DNA of 64,000 nucleotides, from NCBI GenBank assembly GCA_021787475.1, contig JAJYLW010000010.1, positions 1-64,000 on the forward strand. Direction: 5' to 3'. Position 1 is the first letter of the stretch, and every line of letters begins with the position of its first letter. Source of the stretch: Actinomycetes bacterium (GTDB lineage Bacteria; Actinomycetota; Thermoleophilia; BMS3ABIN01). A program made the position numbers and the translations under genes. Below are positions 39,892 through 61,672 of the stretch, one piece after another. A model generated the notes under the pieces. That model made no database searches and had not been told where the DNA came from. It worked only from the letters and a program-made list of their open reading frames with translations.

Positions 39892-40497
39892 TCATTTCGA
39901 GGGAGTATCTTCGCCACTCCAATGAAGCGGCCAACTCCAACAGCTTTTTTTACCGTCTTCAGCTGCCCTGTTCTTCCCCTCCTCTTCGATTTGCGCGCAG
40001 TGTAATTGGAGTTTGGAGCTGACCCGCTTCACGCGATCTTCGTCCCATCCAACTGGAAATTTATTTTGAGATTGAGCAGCCTTGTTCTTCCTGGCCAGCT
40101 TCCACACCCGTTCTTGCTGTGCCCGCATCTCCGGGCTGATTTCAACACCCATAGCCTCAAGTTCAGCAATCGGGCGGATTTCCACTTCCGCGCCTTCGCC
40201 AAAAGGCGCCTGCTTGAGCCAGTGGACGGCCTCGTCCATCGAGTCCACTCGCCAGATCCAATAGCCAGCGATCAGGTCTTTCGTTTCGGGAAAAGGTCCG
40301 TTGATGACCTTCCTTTGATCGCCATCGAAGCGCACACGCTTGCCGTTCGAGCTTGGGAAAAGCCCATCAGCCTCGAGCAGGACACCCGCTTTTGCCAGCT
40401 CCTCATTGAAACTCCCCATTTCCGAGATGTCCTGCGGGTCAGGCATTTTGCCCGACTCGGAATCTTTACTAGCTTTTACTAACACCATGACTCGCAT
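39892..40497 (-). CDS. YCII/DGPF-domain protein with C-terminal extension
   Basis: 201 residues from ATG 40497 (GGAGG, 5 nt). Residues 1-145 are the DGPF/YciI-like ferredoxin fold (MRVMVLVKASKDSESGKMPD, FNEELAKAGVLLEADGL, INGPFPETKDLIAGYWIW). The final 55 residues are basic and Trp-rich, and the paralogue at 61234-61672 ends where they begin (RKNKAA..), so they may result from loss of a stop codon. Family members often accompany sigma factors or SRPBCC proteins; exact role unknown. Confidence 0.8.
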   Translation of the reverse strand: MRVMVLVKASKDSESGKMPDPQDISEMGSFNEELAKAGVLLEADGLFPSSNGKRVRFDGDQRKVINGPFPETKDLIAGYWIWRVDSMDEAVHWLKQAPFGEGAEVEIRPIAELEAMGVEISPEMRAQQERVWKLARKNKAAQSQNKFPVGWDEDRVKRVSSKLQLHCAQIEEEGKNRAAEDGKKSCWSWPLHWSGEDTPSK

Positions 40498-40631
40498 TTT
40501 TACCTCCAAAAGTGGCTTTTCTCGGAAGCACGATTGCTTGCCTTGAACACGATATAACTGTTCTACCCCATACCTGGGAAAGAAACGTGAAAGAAAAATT
40601 CGAACCCGGTTTGGTGCCATAATTTCGGGCA

Positions 40632-43387: not shown

Positions 43388-46300
43388 TCAGGAAAGCACC
43401 ATTCCTTCGATTTCATTAAAATGACCGTTCCACATGACACGCTGGCTTGTAAATATTTTTTCATTTGGCTGGCCTGGATTGCCGGGATTATATGTGGCTG
43501 CGTCGTAGCCGCGAACTTCAACCGGCCCGCTCATCGCCCCAGGGAAGGTAGGCGCCTGGCTTGTCCCGGCCGGCAACGTCAGAATGGCTTTCCGGGCTCC
43601 ACCAATCCAGACCTCGGCTTTCATCTCGCTATTGCCTGGGTTGGAAACCAGGACCCAGTCCGTAAACCCGGCGGAACGCTGATCATACCAGGAAAAATAA
43701 TAGTCTGGCGCAAGTGAGTTGTCCCCATACCCAGTCACCTCTTCAAAAGAAGAGCCGTACAACGACCGTTGGGTTGATAAGAAATTCATATTTGGTACTC
43801 TATGATTCCCTCGGTTGAATGTCGATGCCCGGTAACCTTTCACCTCCACCGGTCCACCTATCAATCCCGGAAAAGACGGTGCAATCGTTCCATCAGCGGG
43901 CACATAAAAATATAAATCACCGGAGTCGGGATTCTTTATCTTCTTGCCGCCAACGGAAATTTCGGCCACCATGTCTACGCTGTTAGGGTTGGAAATCAAA
44001 AGCCAGTCGCGGGCGCCGGGGGACTTTGAGTCATACCAGGCATAATGATAATCATCTGTCAGCCGCGAGGCGGGTATACCCCACGCCTCGTTGAAATATC
44101 CGGACCAATTTACTCTCTGGGAAACGATCACATTCTCCGCATTTGAAGAATCACCCTGTTCGTTCGCAATAACCTCGACCGGCCCTCCCATCACTCCGGG
44201 GAACTCAGGTGTTACGCATCCCCCCCCGGCAATGTGATATGGAGAGGAATTCATCTTTCTGCCGGTAATGAAGATATTTGCGTCTACTGCCGCCGAGCCC
44301 GGGTTGGAAATCAAAATCCAGTCGCGAGCGCCGGCAGACTTTCCGTCATACCAGGTGAAGTAATAATTGCTGTCAAGTTGATGATCATCCAATCCATCAA
44401 CTTCCTCAAAGGAACTGCCGTAAAGAGTGCGCTGACTGATAACCTCGGGCTCTCCTCCCAGAGAAGTGACCCGCACCGGCCCGCCGATTAACCCAGCATA
44501 GCTTGCCGGCTGCGTTTGGCCGGGGCCAGTTACAAGCGGAGCGCCACTCGCCATTTTGCCGCCGATGACGACGTTGTAGCCTGCCTGGCTGCTGCTCTGA
44601 GGGTTGCCCATCACCAGCCAGTCGCGCATTCCCGGGCTTGCCATGTCATACCAGGAAAAATAATACGATTTTGGAGAAGGAGCAGTTGTAAAACTCCAGG
44701 TATAATCCTGTGCCAGCCGGCTCCCGTTTGCGCCCATTACCGCAGTTGTCACCGCCGCATCATATTCTGTCTCGGGATCAAGGTTGTTAACCGGCGTTAA
44801 CGTAGCTGTGTGCGACGTGGCATTGTAGCTGATTTGATCGCTGACGGCCGCTCCGTCCGAGCGCCGCGTCACCTTAAAACTGGAATGATTTACAGAAGCA
44901 GGAGCGATTGCGCTGGAGAAAGACACTGATACCTTACCATTGTCAAAGACCCCCGTAGCGCCCGGAGACGGCGTCGATGAGATGACGCTGATGACGTTGC
45001 CATTGACCGGTACTGGTTGACCTCCGCCGCTGCCAATGCCAACGGCGGCAAACGCGTCTTCAACAGCCTTGACTTCGGCGCTGCCGGTGCCGTAAAGGTC
45101 AGTGGCCGCCTGGACGCTGGCGTCGCGGGCATCAGTGAACTGTGAATCCGAAGTGAGATATTCCGTAAGCGTCCTGTACCAGATCTGGCCCATCTTGTCT
45201 TTGCCGATGCTCATGGCGACGTCGTAAGCGGCTTTATTGGTGATCCCTTCATTCAGGTGAACGCCGCCATTGTCTGCGCTTGTGTTGACATATTCACTCA
45301 TGTTGTCAGGCTGGCCGTAAAGCGGCGGGTCCGACAGGCTGCGGAGCGCGTCCCCGGGAATAGCAGGGGTGTAAACTGCTTCACCAATCTGCCAATCAGG
45401 GTTGGGCTCGGCCAGCTCGCCGAGTACGTCTGAATATGATTCATTCAAGGCGCCGCTCTGACCGGAATATATGAGGCCGGCAGTGTGCTGGGTCACCCCG
45501 TGGGTTATCTCATGGGCGACAACGTCAAGTCCTTCCCCCAAAGGCACGAAGACATTGCCGTCGCCGTCGCCAAACACGACCTGGTAGCCATTCCAGAACG
45601 AATTGTTGTAATTGGCGCCATAATGAACAGTTGAAACGATGGACATTCCCTCATTGTCAATACTGTCACGGCCATAATCATTTAGATAATAATTATAGGT
45701 TAGGCCAACATTGTTATAGGTAGCTTTGGCAACGTCATCGCTGGATGATCCCCCTTCCGATATCATCAACGTGCCAGGCAGATTGTAACCTCCGCCGGCA
45801 GAGTATGTGAGGCGGTTCTCGGCCGCCTGCAAATTGTCATAACTGGCGGCGATATTGCCATTGTGAGCATCAATGAAGTAAACCATCCGCATCGGGGGAT
45901 CGTCGCGGGCAAGGGTGACCTTCCAGGCGAGGATTGCCTGTTTGCCAGCAGGTGCCAAAACAACTAATTGCGGCGGCTCAAGCTTTGAGCTTGGCACGGG
46001 TAAACCGAGGCAGGCCTGAGCCGCGGCCACAGCTTTATCTCTGCCAACATTCGCATCAACTGAAAGTTTTAACCCTGGCACGTACCTGCCGTTGACGGCA
46101 GCAATCTTTCCATTGGCTGAAAAATGGACAGCCAGGTCTGCCCCGAACACAGGCACGCCGTGGTAAATCTGCCTCAGGTAAACATGAGCCATGCCGAGGG
46201 CATCCGTTTTCTGCCTGCTTACAGAAAGCTCCGATTTAGGATCACTCATCCGGTACAAGCTTTTGTTTGCCTGAAAGAAATTGATCGCTGAATCTGCCGG

Positions 46301-46609
46301 TCCCGTCCCGGCCGGCGCAGTAATTGAACCGCTCAGAAAGGCGGGTGCGCCCGTGTCTTGGTCGAGGCGGACATCGGCATTCTGGTCGCCGGCCAACTGC
46401 ATATCGACGTTTGTTTCCTTGCCTGGGACCGCAGAGTTGAGATCCAATGGGCTGCTGGCGCTATTGCCTGTGCTGTGGCCCGGCAGGGAAAATGAAGCAG
46501 TCTGGGAGGCTGCGTCCGCGGCAAGCGGCGCGATGCCCGTGGTCGTAAAAAAAACAAAGGAGACTGAAACCCCTGCGATGACGGTGATTATTAAAAAAGC
46601 GAGTTTCAG
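43388..46609 (-). CDS. Secreted M4 (thermolysin-like) metalloprotease with four C-terminal WYD repeats
   Basis: About 1,073 residues if translation begins at CTG 46609. That codon has AAGGGGG at ideal spacing and gives a full signal peptide (KLAFLIITVIAGVSVSFVFF then TTTGIAPLAADA). The first standard in-frame start, TTG 46447, would omit the signal peptide. Then come an FTP propeptide domain, the M4 catalytic domain (VVAHEITHGVTQH, with zinc ligand Glu in ALNESYSDVLGE), a Big_5-like Ig domain (STPSPGATGVFDNG...), and four ~95-110-aa repeats with [SAT]WYD, RDW, GGPVEV and QRxLYGSSFEEV/FNE motifs. It is probably an extracellular protease held at the surface. Catalytic residues are intact. Confidence 0.9.
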   Translation of the reverse strand: MKLAFLIITVIAGVSVSFVFFTTTGIAPLAADAASQTASFSLPGHSTGNSASSPLDLNSAVPGKETNVDMQLAGDQNADVRLDQDTGAPAFLSGSITAPAGTGPADSAINFFQANKSLYRMSDPKSELSVSRQKTDALGMAHVYLRQIYHGVPVFGADLAVHFSANGKIAAVNGRYVPGLKLSVDANVGRDKAVAAAQACLGLPVPSSKLEPPQLVVLAPAGKQAILAWKVTLARDDPPMRMVYFIDAHNGNIAASYDNLQAAENRLTYSAGGGYNLPGTLMISEGGSSSDDVAKATYNNVGLTYNYYLNDYGRDSIDNEGMSIVSTVHYGANYNNSFWNGYQVVFGDGDGNVFVPLGEGLDVVAHEITHGVTQHTAGLIYSGQSGALNESYSDVLGELAEPNPDWQIGEAVYTPAIPGDALRSLSDPPLYGQPDNMSEYVNTSADNGGVHLNEGITNKAAYDVAMSIGKDKMGQIWYRTLTEYLTSDSQFTDARDASVQAATDLYGTGSAEVKAVEDAFAAVGIGSGGGQPVPVNGNVISVISSTPSPGATGVFDNGKVSVSFSSAIAPASVNHSSFKVTRRSDGAAVSDQISYNATSHTATLTPVNNLDPETEYDAAVTTAVMGANGSRLAQDYTWSFTTAPSPKSYYFSWYDMASPGMRDWLVMGNPQSSSQAGYNVVIGGKMASGAPLVTGPGQTQPASYAGLIGGPVRVTSLGGEPEVISQRTLYGSSFEEVDGLDDHQLDSNYYFTWYDGKSAGARDWILISNPGSAAVDANIFITGRKMNSSPYHIAGGGCVTPEFPGVMGGPVEVIANEQGDSSNAENVIVSQRVNWSGYFNEAWGIPASRLTDDYHYAWYDSKSPGARDWLLISNPNSVDMVAEISVGGKKIKNPDSGDLYFYVPADGTIAPSFPGLIGGPVEVKGYRASTFNRGNHRVPNMNFLSTQRSLYGSSFEEVTGYGDNSLAPDYYFSWYDQRSAGFTDWVLVSNPGNSEMKAEVWIGGARKAILTLPAGTSQAPTFPGAMSGPVEVRGYDAATYNPGNPGQPNEKIFTSQRVMWNGHFNEIEGMVLS

Positions 46610-54225: not shown

Positions 54226-54254
54226 AAAAAAAGAGCGGCCCTTTAAGACCGCTC
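54226..54254 (-). terminator. Intrinsic terminator downstream of secreted-protein gene
   Basis: On the minus strand GAGCGG-TCTTAAAGGG-CCGCTC followed by TTTTTTT. It ends the transcript of the 54403-55506 gene after the two-copy element at 54282-54383. Confidence 0.8.
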
Positions 54255-54281
54255 CATTATTTTAGAGCCTTATGTGAGAAG

Positions 54282-54383
54282 GTAATTCGTGGCGAGGCCA
54301 GCGAAAAGGCCATGTGCAAGGACGCAGGCGGAAAACTTTTGCAGCCGGCCGCAGCAGGATGCGCCTGCCGGGATAGGTTCTAA
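54282..54383 (-). repeat. Copy 1 of a two-copy 3'-UTR element (37-nt longer than copy 2)
   Basis: Reverse-complement match to 59241-59305. Shared blocks on the plus strand: GTAATTCGTGGCGAGGCC (identical, 54282-54299), TTTGCAGCCGGCCGC then CAGGAT, and CCTGCCGGGA with AGGTTCT. A 37-nt stretch (54300-54336) is present only here. It starts 20 bp after the stop of a gene for a secreted protein and lies in the sense orientation between that stop and the terminator. Confidence 0.7.
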
Positions 54384-54402
54384 GCGGCTTGAGCCGGGAT
54401 AT

Positions 54403-55506
54403 TCAGGACCGGGCTCCATGACGGAAATGGCCCCGGCCCGGTCTCACCCAGGCGCGGCTGCCGCCCCTGGCCGGTTTTCTGATGCCGGCCAGTCCGAACA
54501 GATCGCCAAGTTGCTTGACATCCCCTCCGGGCGCCGCCACCTGAAAGTCTTGGCCAAACCGTGAGAACTTGACGGCTGCGTCGAGCTTCACCGAGGTAAC
54601 GTCTTTCAGCAGCGTTGCCGCCTTGCCGTCCTTGTTGCCAGCCAGGGAGGCCAGCGCCGCCGGGACGACTTCAACGACCAGCTTTGTCTGACGGATATGA
54701 TGATCGCCATCCACCCACCACTCCAGGTCCAGTTGTCTGAAGGCGCCTGTGATCTGGCCCCTGGCTGCTTCGAGACGGTTTGCCTGAGCCGTCCTGCCAG
54801 ATTTGTTCAGCGCTGCCACTTCTTCCGAAATAGCCTTGTCGAGATCCAGCGTGGCGGTGTAATGCGTTGTGTCGATTCCATCGACGTTTTCCTGACCGAC
54901 CTGCTTGACATTCTTAAGCAGGGCCTGGGCGCCGCCCGGGAAGACGCTCTTAACACCGGGAAGGCTCCGCTGCGCATCCGGATGATGGTTGACGGCTTGC
55001 GTGCCTGCCGGCCCGGGGCCATGGCATCCGCCCAGCCCGCCGGCTTCGTACCAAGTCCCCGCCAGTTTCAGGTAGAGTTCCTGGTTGACCTCAGTAAACT
55101 GGACGTCGGAAAGTGCGCCGCTGGCAAGGCTGCCCAGGGCCGCCGCGCCGGGGGCGGTGCCGCCGCTGCCGTGCGTGGCGGTTATTTTCTGAATCAGGCT
55201 GTCAAGCCCTGAAATCCGGATGCTGCCTTGGGCTGCCGGCCCGCCCGCGTCCTTCTTGACGTCAGTCCCGCCATTCACGCTCAAATTGAGCGGCAGAACG
55301 CCTTTTAGCTTTGGACTGACGCTTGACAGATCTCCATTTACCTGGAGTGATATATTATAGTCAATATGCCGTGCAACGATATTCTTCGATGCGGTCGGGT
55401 GTGTGGGCTGCGCCGGACCGCCCGATGCCGCCAGGGCATAACTACCTGCCGCGGCGACGGCAAACGCCAGAACGCCAGCAAGAAGAATCCTGTGTTTCTT
55501 AAACAT
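54403..55506 (-). CDS. Secreted protein, LppX/LolA-like fold suspected
   Basis: 367 residues; ATG 55506 with AAGGAG at 6 nt. Signal peptide FKKHRILLAGVLAFAVAAAG then SYALA. The mature part has alternating strands and a middle GIDTTHYTATLDLDKAI segment typical of LppX/LprG/LolA-like lipid-carrier folds (also EWWVDGDHHIRQTKLVV). A His/Gly linker (GGCHGPGPAG) interrupts the fold. There is no lipobox. The last 25 residues are Arg/Gly-rich (KPARGGSRAWVRPGRGHFRH) and look unlike the rest. It ends close to the two-copy element and terminator. Confidence 0.75.
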   Translation of the reverse strand: MFKKHRILLAGVLAFAVAAAGSYALAASGGPAQPTHPTASKNIVARHIDYNISLQVNGDLSSVSPKLKGVLPLNLSVNGGTDVKKDAGGPAAQGSIRISGLDSLIQKITATHGSGGTAPGAAALGSLASGALSDVQFTEVNQELYLKLAGTWYEAGGLGGCHGPGPAGTQAVNHHPDAQRSLPGVKSVFPGGAQALLKNVKQVGQENVDGIDTTHYTATLDLDKAISEEVAALNKSGRTAQANRLEAARGQITGAFRQLDLEWWVDGDHHIRQTKLVVEVVPAALASLAGNKDGKAATLLKDVTSVKLDAAVKFSRFGQDFQVAAPGGDVKQLGDLFGLAGIRKPARGGSRAWVRPGRGHFRHGARS

Positions 55507-55664
55507 CACCTACTCCTTAGCTCTCAGAGAAGCATACTTATGAAAAAGATTAACAAAAGAAAGAATAAGCCGGGTTAAGTTTCTGTAAGAAATCTGTAAA
55601 AACGCAGCCGCTATTCGACTCAGGATTAAATTACCTGACTGGGTTCAGCTTTCAGCGTCCGCTT

Positions 55665-56429
55665 TTAACTGTAAGCCCTTTTAATAAATCCGCGAAGTCC
55701 GACGCCGCTCAGGATGACAACGGCCACCAGCAGGCCAAGAACGACATAGAACTGGCTGATGTGCTGAACCTGGGGCGTCAGCACGCTGCGGAACCCTTCG
55801 GCCGCATAAACCATCGGGTTGATGAGAATTATCTTCTGCAGCCAGGAGACATTTGTCAGCGCGTGCCAGGGATAGTACGCCGCCCCCAGGAAGATCATCG
55901 GGATAATAATCGTGGCGAACATCAGCGGAATCTTGAAGGGGGAGATGCTGGTGCCCAGCGTTATCCCAGTCGCAGCCGATGCAATCCCCACCAAAAATAA
56001 GAGCACAAATAAAGTGAGGAAGCTTTGCACATGGATGGAGAGATTATTTCTCATGATGATCCAGGCGAGCGGGAAAACCAGGCCGCCGGCGATCCAGGAC
56101 TGCAATGTTCCCATGACGATCTTCTCCAGGACGACCATGCTGATCCGGATCGGCGCCATCAACCTGTCCTCGATCTCCTTGATGGCGCCAAAATCCTGCG
56201 ACAGGGGAATGGCTGTCCCCTGCACCCCTGCCATCATCATCGAAGCCGCCAGGATGCCCGGCAGGAGTTGATTGGCATAGGAGGACTGCACCTGTCCCGT
56301 ATTCGGCAGAACGTATCCAAAGACAAACACAAACAGAAACGGCTGCATCGCAATTCTGACGACAAATTCGGGCAAGTCACGGACGAGCACGGTTATGTCA
56401 CGCTCAAGGAGGGCAAAGAATGTTTTCAA
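55665..56429 (-). CDS. ABC-2 type exporter permease
   Basis: 254 residues with six hydrophobic helices, DrrB/NodJ-like (RDLPEFVVRIAMQPFLFVFV, then NTGQVQSSYANQLLPGI and PLMFATIIIPMIFLGAAYYP). The start is TTG 56429 after AAGGGAG and lies 1 nt from the end of the ATPase gene. It forms the membrane half of an exporter for drugs, lipids or polysaccharide; substrate unknown. Confidence 0.92.
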   Translation of the reverse strand: MKTFFALLERDITVLVRDLPEFVVRIAMQPFLFVFVFGYVLPNTGQVQSSYANQLLPGILAASMMMAGVQGTAIPLSQDFGAIKEIEDRLMAPIRISMVVLEKIVMGTLQSWIAGGLVFPLAWIIMRNNLSIHVQSFLTLFVLLFLVGIASAATGITLGTSISPFKIPLMFATIIIPMIFLGAAYYPWHALTNVSWLQKIILINPMVYAAEGFRSVLTPQVQHISQFYVVLGLLVAVVILSGVGLRGFIKRAYS

Positions 56430-56430
56430 T

Positions 56431-57393
56431 TTACTCCCTTAAACGCCTCCCCGTTAAATGAATGAACAAGTCTTCCAGGGTAACCTGGTGCAGCCGGACG
56501 CCGAAAATATCTGCGCTCTCTGCCTGGATTACCCTCATGATGCCGGCTATCAGCGATTGATCGCCCTGGATTGACAATATGACCTTGTCAGCTTCGTCAT
56601 GGCGCGAGACTTCTCCGCTAATGTCAAGTTCTTTAAGCGCCTCGACAAGGCCGTCTGACGCTTCGCCCAGCTCCAGCTCGATTCGGTTGCCGCCCGGAAC
56701 CATCTTCTTCAGATTTGTTGGTGTGTCCATTACCAGGACCTTGCCGTGATCCATGATGGCGATGCAATGGCAAAGTTCGTCAGCTTCATCCATATAATGA
56801 GTGGTCAGAAAGATTGTCTGCCCGCCGGCGTTAAGCTCCCGCACTTTGTCCCAAAGCAGCCTTCTTGACTGAGGGTCAAGGCCAGTTGTCGCTTCATCCA
56901 GAAACAGGATTTCGGGCGCGTGCATCAGCGCCCTGGCAATCATCAGGCGCTGCGCCATGCCGCCGGAAAAAGCGCGGACATAGTCATTCTGCCGTTGACC
57001 CAGGCCCATCATCTCCAGTAGCTCATCCGCCTTCTGCTCGCGCTCCCGTTTGGGGACGCCGAAGTACTTTGCGTGAAAAACAAGGTTTTCCCTGGCGGTC
57101 AGGCTCCTGTCCAGGTTGTTTTGCTGGGGAACGACCGCAATCAGCTTCTTGACGGCAACCTCGTCCTTGATGCTGACGCCAGCGATATGGCCATCGCCGG
57201 AAGTCACCCTGACGCGCGTGGTCAACATGCCGATGGTGGTCGTCTTGCCGGCGCCGTTCGGCCCCAGCAGCCCGAAAATCTCTCCCTGCTTGACCGAAAA
57301 ACTGATGCCCTTGACAGCCTCGACGCGGCGGCGGGAATCGGAAGAGTATATTTTGGTCAGTCTGTTAATCTCAATTACTGATTTTTCCAACAA
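56431..57393 (-). CDS. ABC-2 exporter ATPase (DrrA-like)
   Basis: 320 residues: Walker A LLGPNGAGKTTTIGML, Q-loop VVPQQNNLDRSLT, signature FSGGMAQRLMIARALMH, Walker B EILFLDEATTGLD and H-loop FLTTHYMDEADEL; a C-terminal extension of about 90 residues is typical of DrrA-type ATPases. Start TTG 57393 with AGGA, just after the MBL hydrolase stop, so mbl-ATPase-permease form one operon. Confidence 0.93.
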   Translation of the reverse strand: MLEKSVIEINRLTKIYSSDSRRRVEAVKGISFSVKQGEIFGLLGPNGAGKTTTIGMLTTRVRVTSGDGHIAGVSIKDEVAVKKLIAVVPQQNNLDRSLTARENLVFHAKYFGVPKREREQKADELLEMMGLGQRQNDYVRAFSGGMAQRLMIARALMHAPEILFLDEATTGLDPQSRRLLWDKVRELNAGGQTIFLTTHYMDEADELCHCIAIMDHGKVLVMDTPTNLKKMVPGGNRIELELGEASDGLVEALKELDISGEVSRHDEADKVILSIQGDQSLIAGIMRVIQAESADIFGVRLHQVTLEDLFIHLTGRRLRE

Positions 57394-57402
57394 TATTTCA
57401 TC

Positions 57403-58173
57403 CTAGGAGATGGGGCTGAGACCGCCTGCCGCCAGCGTGGCGATGCGCTCGTTTGCGCCGCCCTCGTAAAGACCGCCATGATAGCAAATAACTTTTTCAA
57501 TGTCATAACCGGCCAGTTTCCTAAGTGACTCTGTGGCCTGCCTAATATCGTAGGCAACCTGCTCGTTGGGGCCCATCAGCTGGCCATCATCACTAACAAC
57601 CATTGCGTCCCCGGCCACCAGGATCCTTGCCTCCTGTAAATAAAGGCAGATGTGCCCGGGAGTATGGCCCGGTACGGCAATGACGGTAATGCCCCCACAG
57701 CAGTCAATTATCTCGGCGTCCGCGACCGTCCTGTCTACATTTGCCCGGGGCGGATTTTCAGTAACCGCCCGCAGCGCCCGGCGCCGCCCTTCGGCCACCT
57801 CCGGCGGCAGCATCGATTCGATTCTGGCAATCACCTCGGGCTTCATCTTTACGAGAGGCTTCTCGCCTTCGATATAAGGCTTTTCTCCGGCGCTGGCCAG
57901 AACTTCAACTTTTTGGGGCGCCGCTTTCACAAGGTCCGCCAGCCCGCCGATGTGATCAATATCCTGATGGGTAATGATAACCCTGCTCAGTCTGTCAAAC
58001 GGGGCAACGGCTCTCTCGATCGCCTTGCGGACAGCCTCCGCCTGGCCGGGAAAGCCTGCGTCGACAAGGATCGCCTCCTGATCATTAAAAATCAGTGTCG
58101 GATTATAGGCGCTCGCTCGCCCCATCACGTTTGCGGAAATCTCCAGCATTTCCACACCGTTGGCAACTTTCAT
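57403..58173 (-). CDS. MBL-fold metallo-hydrolase
   Basis: 256 residues from ATG 58173 (GGGAGG). Metal ligands: THQDIDHIGG in place of HxHxDH (first His is replaced: Q-D-I-D-H pattern with THQDIDH), GHTPGHICLY and VAGDAMVV, and a late YHGGLYEGG. It resembles the glyoxalase-II-like MBL proteins commonly seen in actinobacteria and firmicutes. First gene of the operon with the ABC exporter; a link between the two activities is unknown. Confidence 0.88.
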   Translation of the reverse strand: MKVANGVEMLEISANVMGRASAYNPTLIFNDQEAILVDAGFPGQAEAVRKAIERAVAPFDRLSRVIITHQDIDHIGGLADLVKAAPQKVEVLASAGEKPYIEGEKPLVKMKPEVIARIESMLPPEVAEGRRRALRAVTENPPRANVDRTVADAEIIDCCGGITVIAVPGHTPGHICLYLQEARILVAGDAMVVSDDGQLMGPNEQVAYDIRQATESLRKLAGYDIEKVICYHGGLYEGGANERIATLAAGGLSPIS

Positions 58174-58680
58174 CGTAACCTCCCTGGTCCGCATGCTTCC
58201 AGCCATTTTAGCTACTTTTCGAAGCAGCGGCTTGATTTTTTTCCATCCTGAAGCATTTATCGCCTAAGCTTGTCGATGGCAACCGGTATGATTTCGAAAA
58301 ACTCTATTCCGCCGCCAGCGGAGAGGCATGCTGATCACGCCGTTTACCAACGGAACTCTTGTGGATGAAGACCCGGCTGAGTTCCTGGAACGCATGAGGA
58401 TGAGCACGATTTATTTTTTTCTTGCTGTTGCAATATTATTGAAACAGGGGTATTATTATTTACCACTTTGCCTGGCGTCAAAGGCGGTGTTTGACGCTGG
58501 CAACAGCATCTGGGCTTGCAATAATCCTGACAGCTGAGATAAAGAAAGCTAGTGCGTCGATCTGGTCGACGCGTTCCTTACTGGTTTGTATGCCTGTTCA
58601 GGCAAGCTTTCGAATTTACTCTTTTCCGTGCCGGCTTCAAACTACGGGAAGAAATCTCTTTAAGTAACAGAGAAGAAAGC
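58174..58680. other. Gap of ~500 bp without a convincing gene
   Basis: Divergent spacer between the MBL hydrolase and the thioredoxin-like lipoprotein. An open frame at 58328-58537 lacks a ribosome site and its first part (LVDEDPAEFLERMR) might be a gene relic. A 7-bp dyad GCGTCGA/TCGACGC lies at about 58553-58571. No clear promoter was identified. Confidence 0.4.
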
Positions 58681-59244
58681 ATGTCAAAACGCCTTCGATT
58701 TGTGCTCATCCCTTTGCCGGCTGTTCTTGTCCTCATGTATTTGGCTGCCATTGTTGCCGGCTGCGGCAGTGGGTCAGCAGGCGCCGCCAGCACTGGCAAA
58801 ACCAGCCAATCCCTGGGCAGTGCTCCCGATTTTAACGTTGAATCGCTTTCCGGCGGCAGGATCTCGTTGAAAGGAGAGCAGGGCAATGGCAAACCCCTGG
58901 TCCTCAATTTCGGCGGCTCATGGTGCGGCAGCTGCAAGCAGGAGGCGCCGACGCTTGCGGCGGCCGGCAAAAAATACAAGAACAGCGTCGATTTTCTTTT
59001 CCTGGCAGTCAAGGACAAGCCAGCCAACGCCATGGCCTTTGTCAAAAATTACGGGTTTACTTTTCCCGCTGGCCTGGACCCCAACCAGGACGTCTTCCAT
59101 GATTACCAGCAGGCAGCCGGCGTTCGGGCAAGCGGAACGCCAACAACCTTTTTTATAAACAAGAGCGGCGCCATCATCAAATATTATGTAGGTCCGCTCG
59201 ACCCGCAGCAACTGGACGCCGAGATCGGAAAGATCTTGCATTAA
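58681..59244 (+). CDS. TlpA/ResA-like thioredoxin-fold lipoprotein
   Basis: 187 residues from ATG 58681 (GAGAAGAAAG upstream); the open frame to 58552 lacks a signal. Lipoprotein signal RLRFVLIPLPAVLVLMYLAA then IVAGCG. Thioredoxin fold with the active site FGGSWCGSCKQEAPTLAA, and the cis-Pro region ASGTPTTFFINKSG. Such proteins reduce or isomerise disulfides or assist haem-protein maturation outside the membrane. Its stop lies inside copy 2 of the two-copy element. Confidence 0.92.
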   Translation: MSKRLRFVLIPLPAVLVLMYLAAIVAGCGSGSAGAASTGKTSQSLGSAPDFNVESLSGGRISLKGEQGNGKPLVLNFGGSWCGSCKQEAPTLAAAGKKYKNSVDFLFLAVKDKPANAMAFVKNYGFTFPAGLDPNQDVFHDYQQAAGVRASGTPTTFFINKSGAIIKYYVGPLDPQQLDAEIGKILH

Positions 59245-59305
59245 GAACCTGTCCCGGCAGGTATATCCTGTTGCGGCCGGCTGCAAAGGCCTCGCCACGA
59301 ATTAC
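59241..59305 (+). repeat. Copy 2 of the two-copy 3'-UTR element
   Basis: Begins at the stop codon of the thioredoxin-like gene (TTAAGAACCTGTCCCGGCAG...) and ends with GGCCTCGCCACGAATTAC. Same orientation relative to its upstream gene as copy 1. It lacks the 37-nt insert of copy 1. Outside the shared blocks the flanks differ except for a short CTCTAAA match beyond the end. Confidence 0.7.
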
Positions 59306-59375
59306 ATACCGGGACAAACTCTAAAGCATTTCGTCTTCCTTAATCTGCCTTATAAGTATGCAGCTGTGTCAACTT

Positions 59376-60963: not shown

Positions 60964-61233
60964 GTCTTTTCCCCTTTCTTCTTTCGCCTCACGATTTATT
61001 TTTCCAGCTTCATATTCAGCTGATACCACTTCTGTAACTTCCTAAACCGGCGGTCTGACGACTGCTGCTCAGAGAGTATGCCTACGGTTTTTGGCTTACT
61101 TTCGCCAGGCTGCAAAACATTCGCAAGGGCATTTGACATCGCGCTTCCGCACTGTGTGCTTGGATGAACCAGCAGTAGTCAATAAGAAGATATGGCCGCC
61201 GCGGACGGCATAAATCATTTGATGGGGGTTAAA

Positions 61234-61672
61234 ATGCGAGTAATGGAAATTGTAAAAGCCAATGATGATTCCGCGTCGGGCAAGATGCCAGACCTAGGGA
61301 GTATCGCTGAAATGGGGAACTTCAATGAGGAGCTGGCGATGGCGGGCGTTCTGCTCGAGGCGGACGGACTCTACCCAAGCTCGTGCGGCAAGCGTGTCCG
61401 TTTCGGTGGCGATGAGCGGATGGCCATTGACGGGCCCTTTCCCGAAACGAAAGATTTGATCGCCGGCTTACTGGATCTGGAGTGTGGACTCTGTAGAAGA
61501 AGCTGTCGATTGGCTCAAGAAGGCGCCTTTTGGCGGAGGTTTGGATGTGGGGATCCGCCCAATTGCAAGTCTTGAGGATATGGGTGTTAAACTCACCCCG
61601 GAGATGCAGGCCCAGGAAGAAAGAATGTGGGAGTTGGTCCGGAAGAACAAGGCTGCCAAAAAGGAGGAATAA
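61234..61672 (+). pseudogene. YCII/DGPF-domain protein with one-base insertion
   Basis: ATG 61234 gives MRVMEIVKANDDSASGKMPD, nearly the same as the paralogue at 39892-40497. Frame is lost at 61468-61469 (an extra T in GGCTTACTGG); the other frame continues SVDSVEEAVDWLKKAPFGG to RKNKAAKKEE and a stop at 61672. The homology on both sides is unbroken, so this is either a fresh frameshift or a sequencing error. The SRPBCC gene follows immediately. Confidence 0.8.

What the first reader, a model, noticed from the sequence alone, without database searches (positions are those of the whole stretch)
54282..59305. Two-copy element located just after the stop codons of two exported-protein genes
Copy 1 (54282-54383) and copy 2 (59241-59305) share blocks such as GTAATTCGTGGCGAGGCC and TGCAGCCGGCCGC in opposite chromosomal but equal transcriptional orientation. 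Each sits 3' of a gene for an exported protein (LppX-like; TlpA-like). Copy 1 carries a 37-nt insert. It could be a 3'-UTR regulatory RNA, a mobile mini-element, or an mRNA localisation signal.
Basis: seen in the sequence. Interest (0 to 1): 0.56.

Follow-up and report, generated by a model that had tools for sequence, protein, structure and literature searches.

The report
Miniature transposon at gene stop codons
The two similar stretches are worn copies of a small jumping DNA element that has spread through this uncultured actinobacterium and its relatives and often lands exactly on a gene's stop codon without damaging the gene; the kind of element is ordinary, though this family appears to be new.

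Summary
The two copies belong to a genome-wide family: about 52 places in the 1.84-Mb genome. Relatives carry well-preserved copies of about 179 bp that show what it is: a palindromic, non-coding element with ~17-bp terminal inverted repeats (TIRs) and a 3-bp TNA target duplication (identical on both sides in 34 of 52 distinct copies). It is a MITE (miniature inverted-repeat transposable element). IS5-family transposases in the same class have matching ends and TNA duplications; the window's own genome has none found, so these copies look like fossils. Copy 1 has an empty orthologous site in a relative with the same gene and terminator. Elements are never inside predicted genes (0 of 60) and sit exactly on a stop codon more often than available target sites predict: 8 of 21 and 10 of 39, against 8-14%. 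The duplicated TAA, or TTA plus the element's G, restores the stop. There is no orientation preference, no sign of an exported-protein preference, and the hairpin has decayed in copy 1. A conserved 3'-UTR RNA is not supported; 'mobile mini-element' is.

The parts
54262..54264 (.). TTA at the left border of copy 1 (target duplication, imperfect: TTA against TAA)
   Evidence: read; borders defined from full-length relatives
54265..54380 (+). Copy 1: MITE, 116 bp, internal deletion relative to the full-length element of about 179 bp
54381..54383 (.). TAA at the right border of copy 1
54232..54255 (-). Intrinsic-terminator-like hairpin of the gene upstream of copy 1, conserved in the element-free orthologous locus; copy 1 was inserted between the gene and this terminator
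54403..55509 (-). Gene 5' of copy 1 (exported or lipoprotein-like, no Pfam match); its stop codon lies 22 bp from the element
58702..59244 (+). TlpA-like thioredoxin-fold gene (AhpC-TSA/Redoxin); its TAA stop codon is the left target duplication of copy 2
59242..59244 (.). TAA: left target duplication of copy 2 and stop codon of the TlpA-like gene
59245..59321 (-). Copy 2: MITE, 77 bp, larger internal deletion, terminal inverted repeats still paired
59322..59324 (.). TAA: right target duplication of copy 2 (identical to the left one)

Best explanation
The two copies are decayed members of a MITE family: a non-coding palindromic element of about 179 bp with ~17-bp terminal inverted repeats, moved in trans by an IS5-family (NF033580-type) DDE transposase that inserts at (C/T)T(A/T)A(A/G) and duplicates the central TNA. 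Shown: copies, ends, duplications, target consensus, an empty site for copy 1, and IS5-family elements with matching ends in the same class. Inferred: that such a transposase did the moving, and that the window's genome has since lost it. When the target is a stop codon the gene survives, because the stop is restored either as the duplicated TAA or as TAG made from TTA plus the element's first G. This, with loss of insertions inside genes, explains why copies sit just after stop codons. No host function need be assumed; in copy 1 the element merely lengthens the stretch between the gene and an older terminator.
For: About 52 clusters of matches in G000. Full-length copies of uniform length: 39 of the 51 core-pattern occurrences had both ends in view, and 24 of those 39 have identical TNA on both sides; 34 of 52 distinct copies in the larger set. 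Target preference C/T before TNA: C 40, T 22, A 12, G 2 of 76 flanks. Two identical 178-bp copies at different sites in G011, each between TTA and TTA, show recent movement. Empty site in G002: same gene (73% identical), same terminator, same next gene, no element. IS5-family transposase at a G011 contig end whose right end, read inwards, is TTA|GGACCTATCCCGGTAGG; homologous IS copies of about 940-970 bp in G185, G060 and G159 with TIRs GGACCTATCCCGGTAGG, GGGCCTATCCCTGTAGG and GAGCCTGTCTCAG and identical TTA or TAA on both sides. Type-B ends occur in 6 of 299 class genomes, with zero reversed-pattern controls. None of 60 copies inside a predicted gene, while 68-75% of TWA sites are. Stop-codon junction 8 of 21 and 10 of 39 against nulls of 8.0-14.0% and 7.9-9.6%.
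Against: No autonomous element with the type-A or type-B ends was found, and G000, G001, G002, G003 and G005 gave no match to the G011-type transposase. The IS interiors share nothing convincing with the MITE body beyond the ends, so it is not a simple deletion derivative. An IS1182-like element in G001 has ends beginning GAGCCTGTCC and could be another mobiliser. Copy 1's target duplication is imperfect (TTA/TAA). Of seven IS copies tabulated, four (L145, L146, L149, L168) lack an identical TNA on both sides.
Confidence: 0.93

Rival explanations
1. A conserved 3'-UTR regulatory RNA (stability hairpin, sRNA or terminator) retained for the host.
For: Full-length copies fold into one long hairpin (-106 kcal/mol, z -12), 10 of 65 pairs show two-sided changes, and copies favour gene 3' ends. 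MITE-derived sRNAs and 3'-UTR MITEs are known in Coxiella (PMC10969869, passages).
Against: Two-sided changes lie almost only in the TIRs, where matched ends are expected for DNA transposition. Copy 1 does not fold better than shuffles. No orientation preference. The 3' enrichment is at the stop codon itself, not in the following 4-30 nt (5 of 60 against about 4 expected). The empty-site ortholog keeps its own terminator without the element.
Confidence: 0.05
2. A REP/REPIN-type palindrome moved by a RAYT (Y1) transposase.
For: Short, palindromic, extragenic, many copies.
Against: It has TIRs with TNA target duplications and IS5-like ends, which REPs lack (recalled). RAYT genes were not searched for.
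Confidence: 0.02

Closest known systems
MITEPsy1 of Pseudomonas syringae (PMC3189936, passages read)
   Same: 100-bp IS5-related MITE with 18-bp TIRs, inserting at CTAG or YTAA; shown to move in the laboratory.
   Different: 4-bp duplication there, 3-bp TNA here; here a long palindromic body and stop-codon enrichment. Sequences were not aligned with each other.
QMITE2 of Coxiella burnetii and Chunjie of Geobacter (review PMC10969869, passages read; the host of Chunjie is recalled)
   Same: QMITE2 lies mainly in 3' untranslated regions; Chunjie is 178-235 bp, multi-copy, intergenic, with direct repeats and many partial copies.
   Different: Sequences not compared here; the review holds no mention of 'stop codon'.
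IS5-family insertion sequences (NCBIfam NF033580)
   Same: Ends GRRCCTATCCCGGTAGG and TNA duplication match type-C MITE ends.
   Different: The MITE carries no gene, and its interior is unrelated to the IS copies examined.

Membership tests
MITE | Short, non-coding, terminal inverted repeats | tested here: met
   176-181 bp full length, about 17-bp TIRs
MITE | Target-site duplication | tested here: met
   Identical TNA on both sides in 34 of 52 distinct copies
MITE | Interspersed multi-copy with filled and empty sites | tested here: met
   About 52 places in G000; empty site for copy 1 in G002
MITE | Ends shared with an autonomous element able to move it | tested here: inconclusive
   Matching IS5-family ends in G011 (one end, contig edge) and other class members, none found in G000 itself; the assemblies are draft MAGs and types A and B have no partner
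MITE | Transposition in trans demonstrated | not testable with these tools
   needs a bench assay
IS5-derived MITE | TIR and duplication length of an IS5-family element | tested here: met
   Type C only: 15 of 17 identical to the L144 end, TNA duplication
IS5-derived MITE | Interior derived from the IS by deletion | tested here: not met
   No convincing similarity between MITE body and eight transposase loci
3'-UTR structured RNA family | Structure kept in all members, fixed orientation to the gene | tested here: not met
   no Rfam match

The most novel reading that the evidence does not exclude
The two ends of the element are replaced as a unit. One body carries at least three different TIR types that match at both ends (51 of 52 copies), yet TIR type is nearly independent of the middle of the body (r2 at most 0.19 at the tested columns 89-135, with all four combinations present at each two-allele site), and association follows distance along the hairpin stem (Spearman -0.73) rather than along the sequence (-0.26, not significant). 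This suggests an end-joined circle or a hairpin copying step that renews both ends together, letting one passenger body follow changing transposases.
Probability: 0.25. Interest if true: 0.5.

Novelty: new member of a known kind. Interest (0 to 1): 0.33.

Why it matters
It removes a candidate regulatory RNA and replaces it with a documented mobile-element family in a poorly known actinobacterial lineage. Two points have wider use: a simple, testable account of why small transposons collect at gene ends (the target motif contains the stop codon and insertion restores it), and a family in which both ends appear to change together while the body is shared.

Tried and rejected
Rfam on seven loci and on the window: no family overlies the element. 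Plasmid records: no match. IMG/VR viral contigs: no exact match to a 20-base core. PF01609 and PF13340 searches of seven genomes: none in G000. Ends of six further transposase loci (L086-L089, L091, L092): only the IS1182-like L089 showed related ends, over 10 bases. Empty site for copy 2: not found, because the sequence downstream of the TlpA-like gene differs in the relatives shown; there only the C-terminus could be compared, and it ends at the homologous position. Compensatory changes as evidence for RNA: rejected, because they sit almost only in the TIRs. A replicate of the end-swap pattern in G011 was too small (9 copies). Paper searches listed no paper on this element, and the passages read showed no stop-codon restoration by an IS5-type MITE; that is no proof of absence.

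Limits: the gene caller is a home-made codon-usage script. Context counts use only elements with both ends recognised: 21 of 52 clusters in G000 (the left border of copy 1 was set by hand) and 39 of 51 in the second set, which is mostly G001 with some G011, G091 and JAMDEO. Each of the two G000 searches scored only 40 candidates, so 52 is a lower bound. The 52 distinct copies are those with ends within 5 edits of a known type and a length of 165-195. Alignment A1 has 38 rows: one of the 39 both-ended copies (L125, identical to L105) was left out.

Full report
What was claimed. Two sequences, each behind the stop codon of an exported-protein gene, share blocks in opposite chromosomal orientation. 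This is true and not chance.

What it is. The shared sequence occurs in about 52 places of the 1.84-Mb genome. Among 99 genomes drawn as relatives, own included, 7 had a match, and an exact-core scan of the GTDB species collection found it in four actinobacterial MAGs only (DBS2-1.bin122, DBS2-1.bin123, SKS1.bin6, FK_Sedi_B_Bin.10; that scan may leave out the window's own genome). I equate the first three with G001, G011 and G091 from equal contig lengths. Copies there are far better preserved: 39 of 51 core occurrences had both ends in view, with lengths of 176-181 bp. They start GAATCTATCTCAAAAGG (type B), GAGCCTATTTCGATAGG (type A) or GGGCCTATGCCGGTAGG / GAGCCTATCCCGGYAGG (type C), end with the reverse complement, and are bordered by TNA direct repeats (24 of 39 identical TNA; 34 of 52 in the larger set). 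The base before TNA is mostly C or T (62 of 76 flanks). Full-length copies fold as one hairpin (z -12).

The window copies. With borders set from these relatives, copy 1 is 54265-54380 and copy 2 is 59245-59321. Copy 2 keeps an exact TAA/TAA duplication, and its left TAA is the stop codon of the TlpA-like gene; orthologs of that protein end at the homologous residue, so the insertion sits on the native stop position. Copy 1 lies between a gene and its intrinsic terminator. In G002 the ortholog (73% identical) has the same terminator sequence and the same next gene, with no element in between: an empty site. Copy 1 has lost the hairpin (z -0.27 and -0.45) and copy 2 keeps a terminal stem (z -3.3 and -3.9).

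Who moved it. An IS5-family transposase (NF033580, split over two frames, each part below the curated cut-off on its own; PF13340 and PF01609 above theirs) lies at a contig start in G011 and its end, read inwards, is TTA|GGACCTATCCCGGTAGG. Homologs occur in 25 of 299 class genomes. Of seven IS copies tabulated, L144, L150 and L154 have matched TIRs and identical TTA or TAA on both sides; L145, L146, L149 and L168 do not. The best end (L144) matches the type-C MITE end at 15 of 17 positions. The MITE interior is unrelated to these IS copies. G000 itself gave no match. Type-B ends were seen in 6 of 299 class genomes, 130 ends in G001 alone and zero in reversed controls, but no transposase with type-A or type-B ends was found.

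Why gene ends. None of 60 both-ended copies lies inside a predicted gene, although 2577 of 3777 and 2851 of 3778 TWA sites do. Exactly at the stop codon lie 8 of 21 in G000 and 10 of 39 in the second set; available intergenic or stop sites predict 8.0-14.0% and 7.9-9.6% depending on how strict the target motif is (binomial p 0.0001-0.005 and 0.0007-0.003). In the next 4-30 nt there is no excess (5 of 60 against about 4). The junction sequences show how the gene survives: stop = duplicated TAA, or stop = TAG from TTA plus the element's G, and in a few cases (d -16 or -20) the frame runs about 20 nt into the element and stops at a TAA or TAG inside it. NCBIfam matches reach or nearly reach the C-terminus in dTDP-glucose dehydratase and the 16S rRNA methyltransferase; in phosphopentomutase and the GalT-like protein they stop 49 and 27 residues short of it, and a fifth protein had no match, so insertion at the native stop is supported for some genes only. 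Orientation to the gene is even: 10 right-end against 9 left-end in G000, 14 against 14 in the second set.

A further pattern. In 38 aligned full-length copies, 37 have the same TIR type at both ends; in 52 distinct copies from several genomes, 51 do. Yet TIR type is almost independent of sites in the middle of the body and re-associates towards the far end; r2 falls with stem distance (Spearman -0.73, p 0.0004) and not with linear position (-0.26, p 0.27), also after collapsing near-identical copies to 26 representatives. Against it: column 164, close to the right end, shows no association (r2 0.02), copies share ancestry so these p-values are optimistic, body sites near the loop may be hypermutable, and G011 was too small to repeat it. 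Selection for matched ends plus recombination could give the same picture.

Comparison. The element works like, and meets the structural features of, a MITE. MITEPsy1 is the nearest described IS5-type case (PMC3189936, passages), and QMITE2 is a precedent for 3'-UTR location (PMC10969869, passages). It is a new family of a known kind.

Noticed in passing
window 40076-40508 and 61223-61656: Two paralogous small genes on opposite strands, 79% identical over 434 bp; the copy at 61192 appears to go out of frame after ETKDLIAG, so it may be a broken remnant.
   Followed up: partly
window 43986-44040 and 44301-44355: 55-bp direct repeat (89%) inside one predicted gene (43388-46447, minus), probably an internal protein repeat.
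   Followed up: partly
L089 1411-2787 (G001:C44): IS1182-like transposase gene (label from recall) whose flanking inverted repeats begin GAGCCTGTCC, the same first ten bases as some MITE ends.
   Followed up: partly
G000:C33:66688 (L237): A UvrA-like gene (label from recall) whose last residues and stop codon appear to be supplied by the element.
   Followed up: no
G000 C13:70088, C16:17864, C16:88136, C29:10213, C19:53830, C15:20488: Six places where the ends found are exactly 64 bp apart, suggesting a minimal sub-family that may itself have moved.
   Followed up: no
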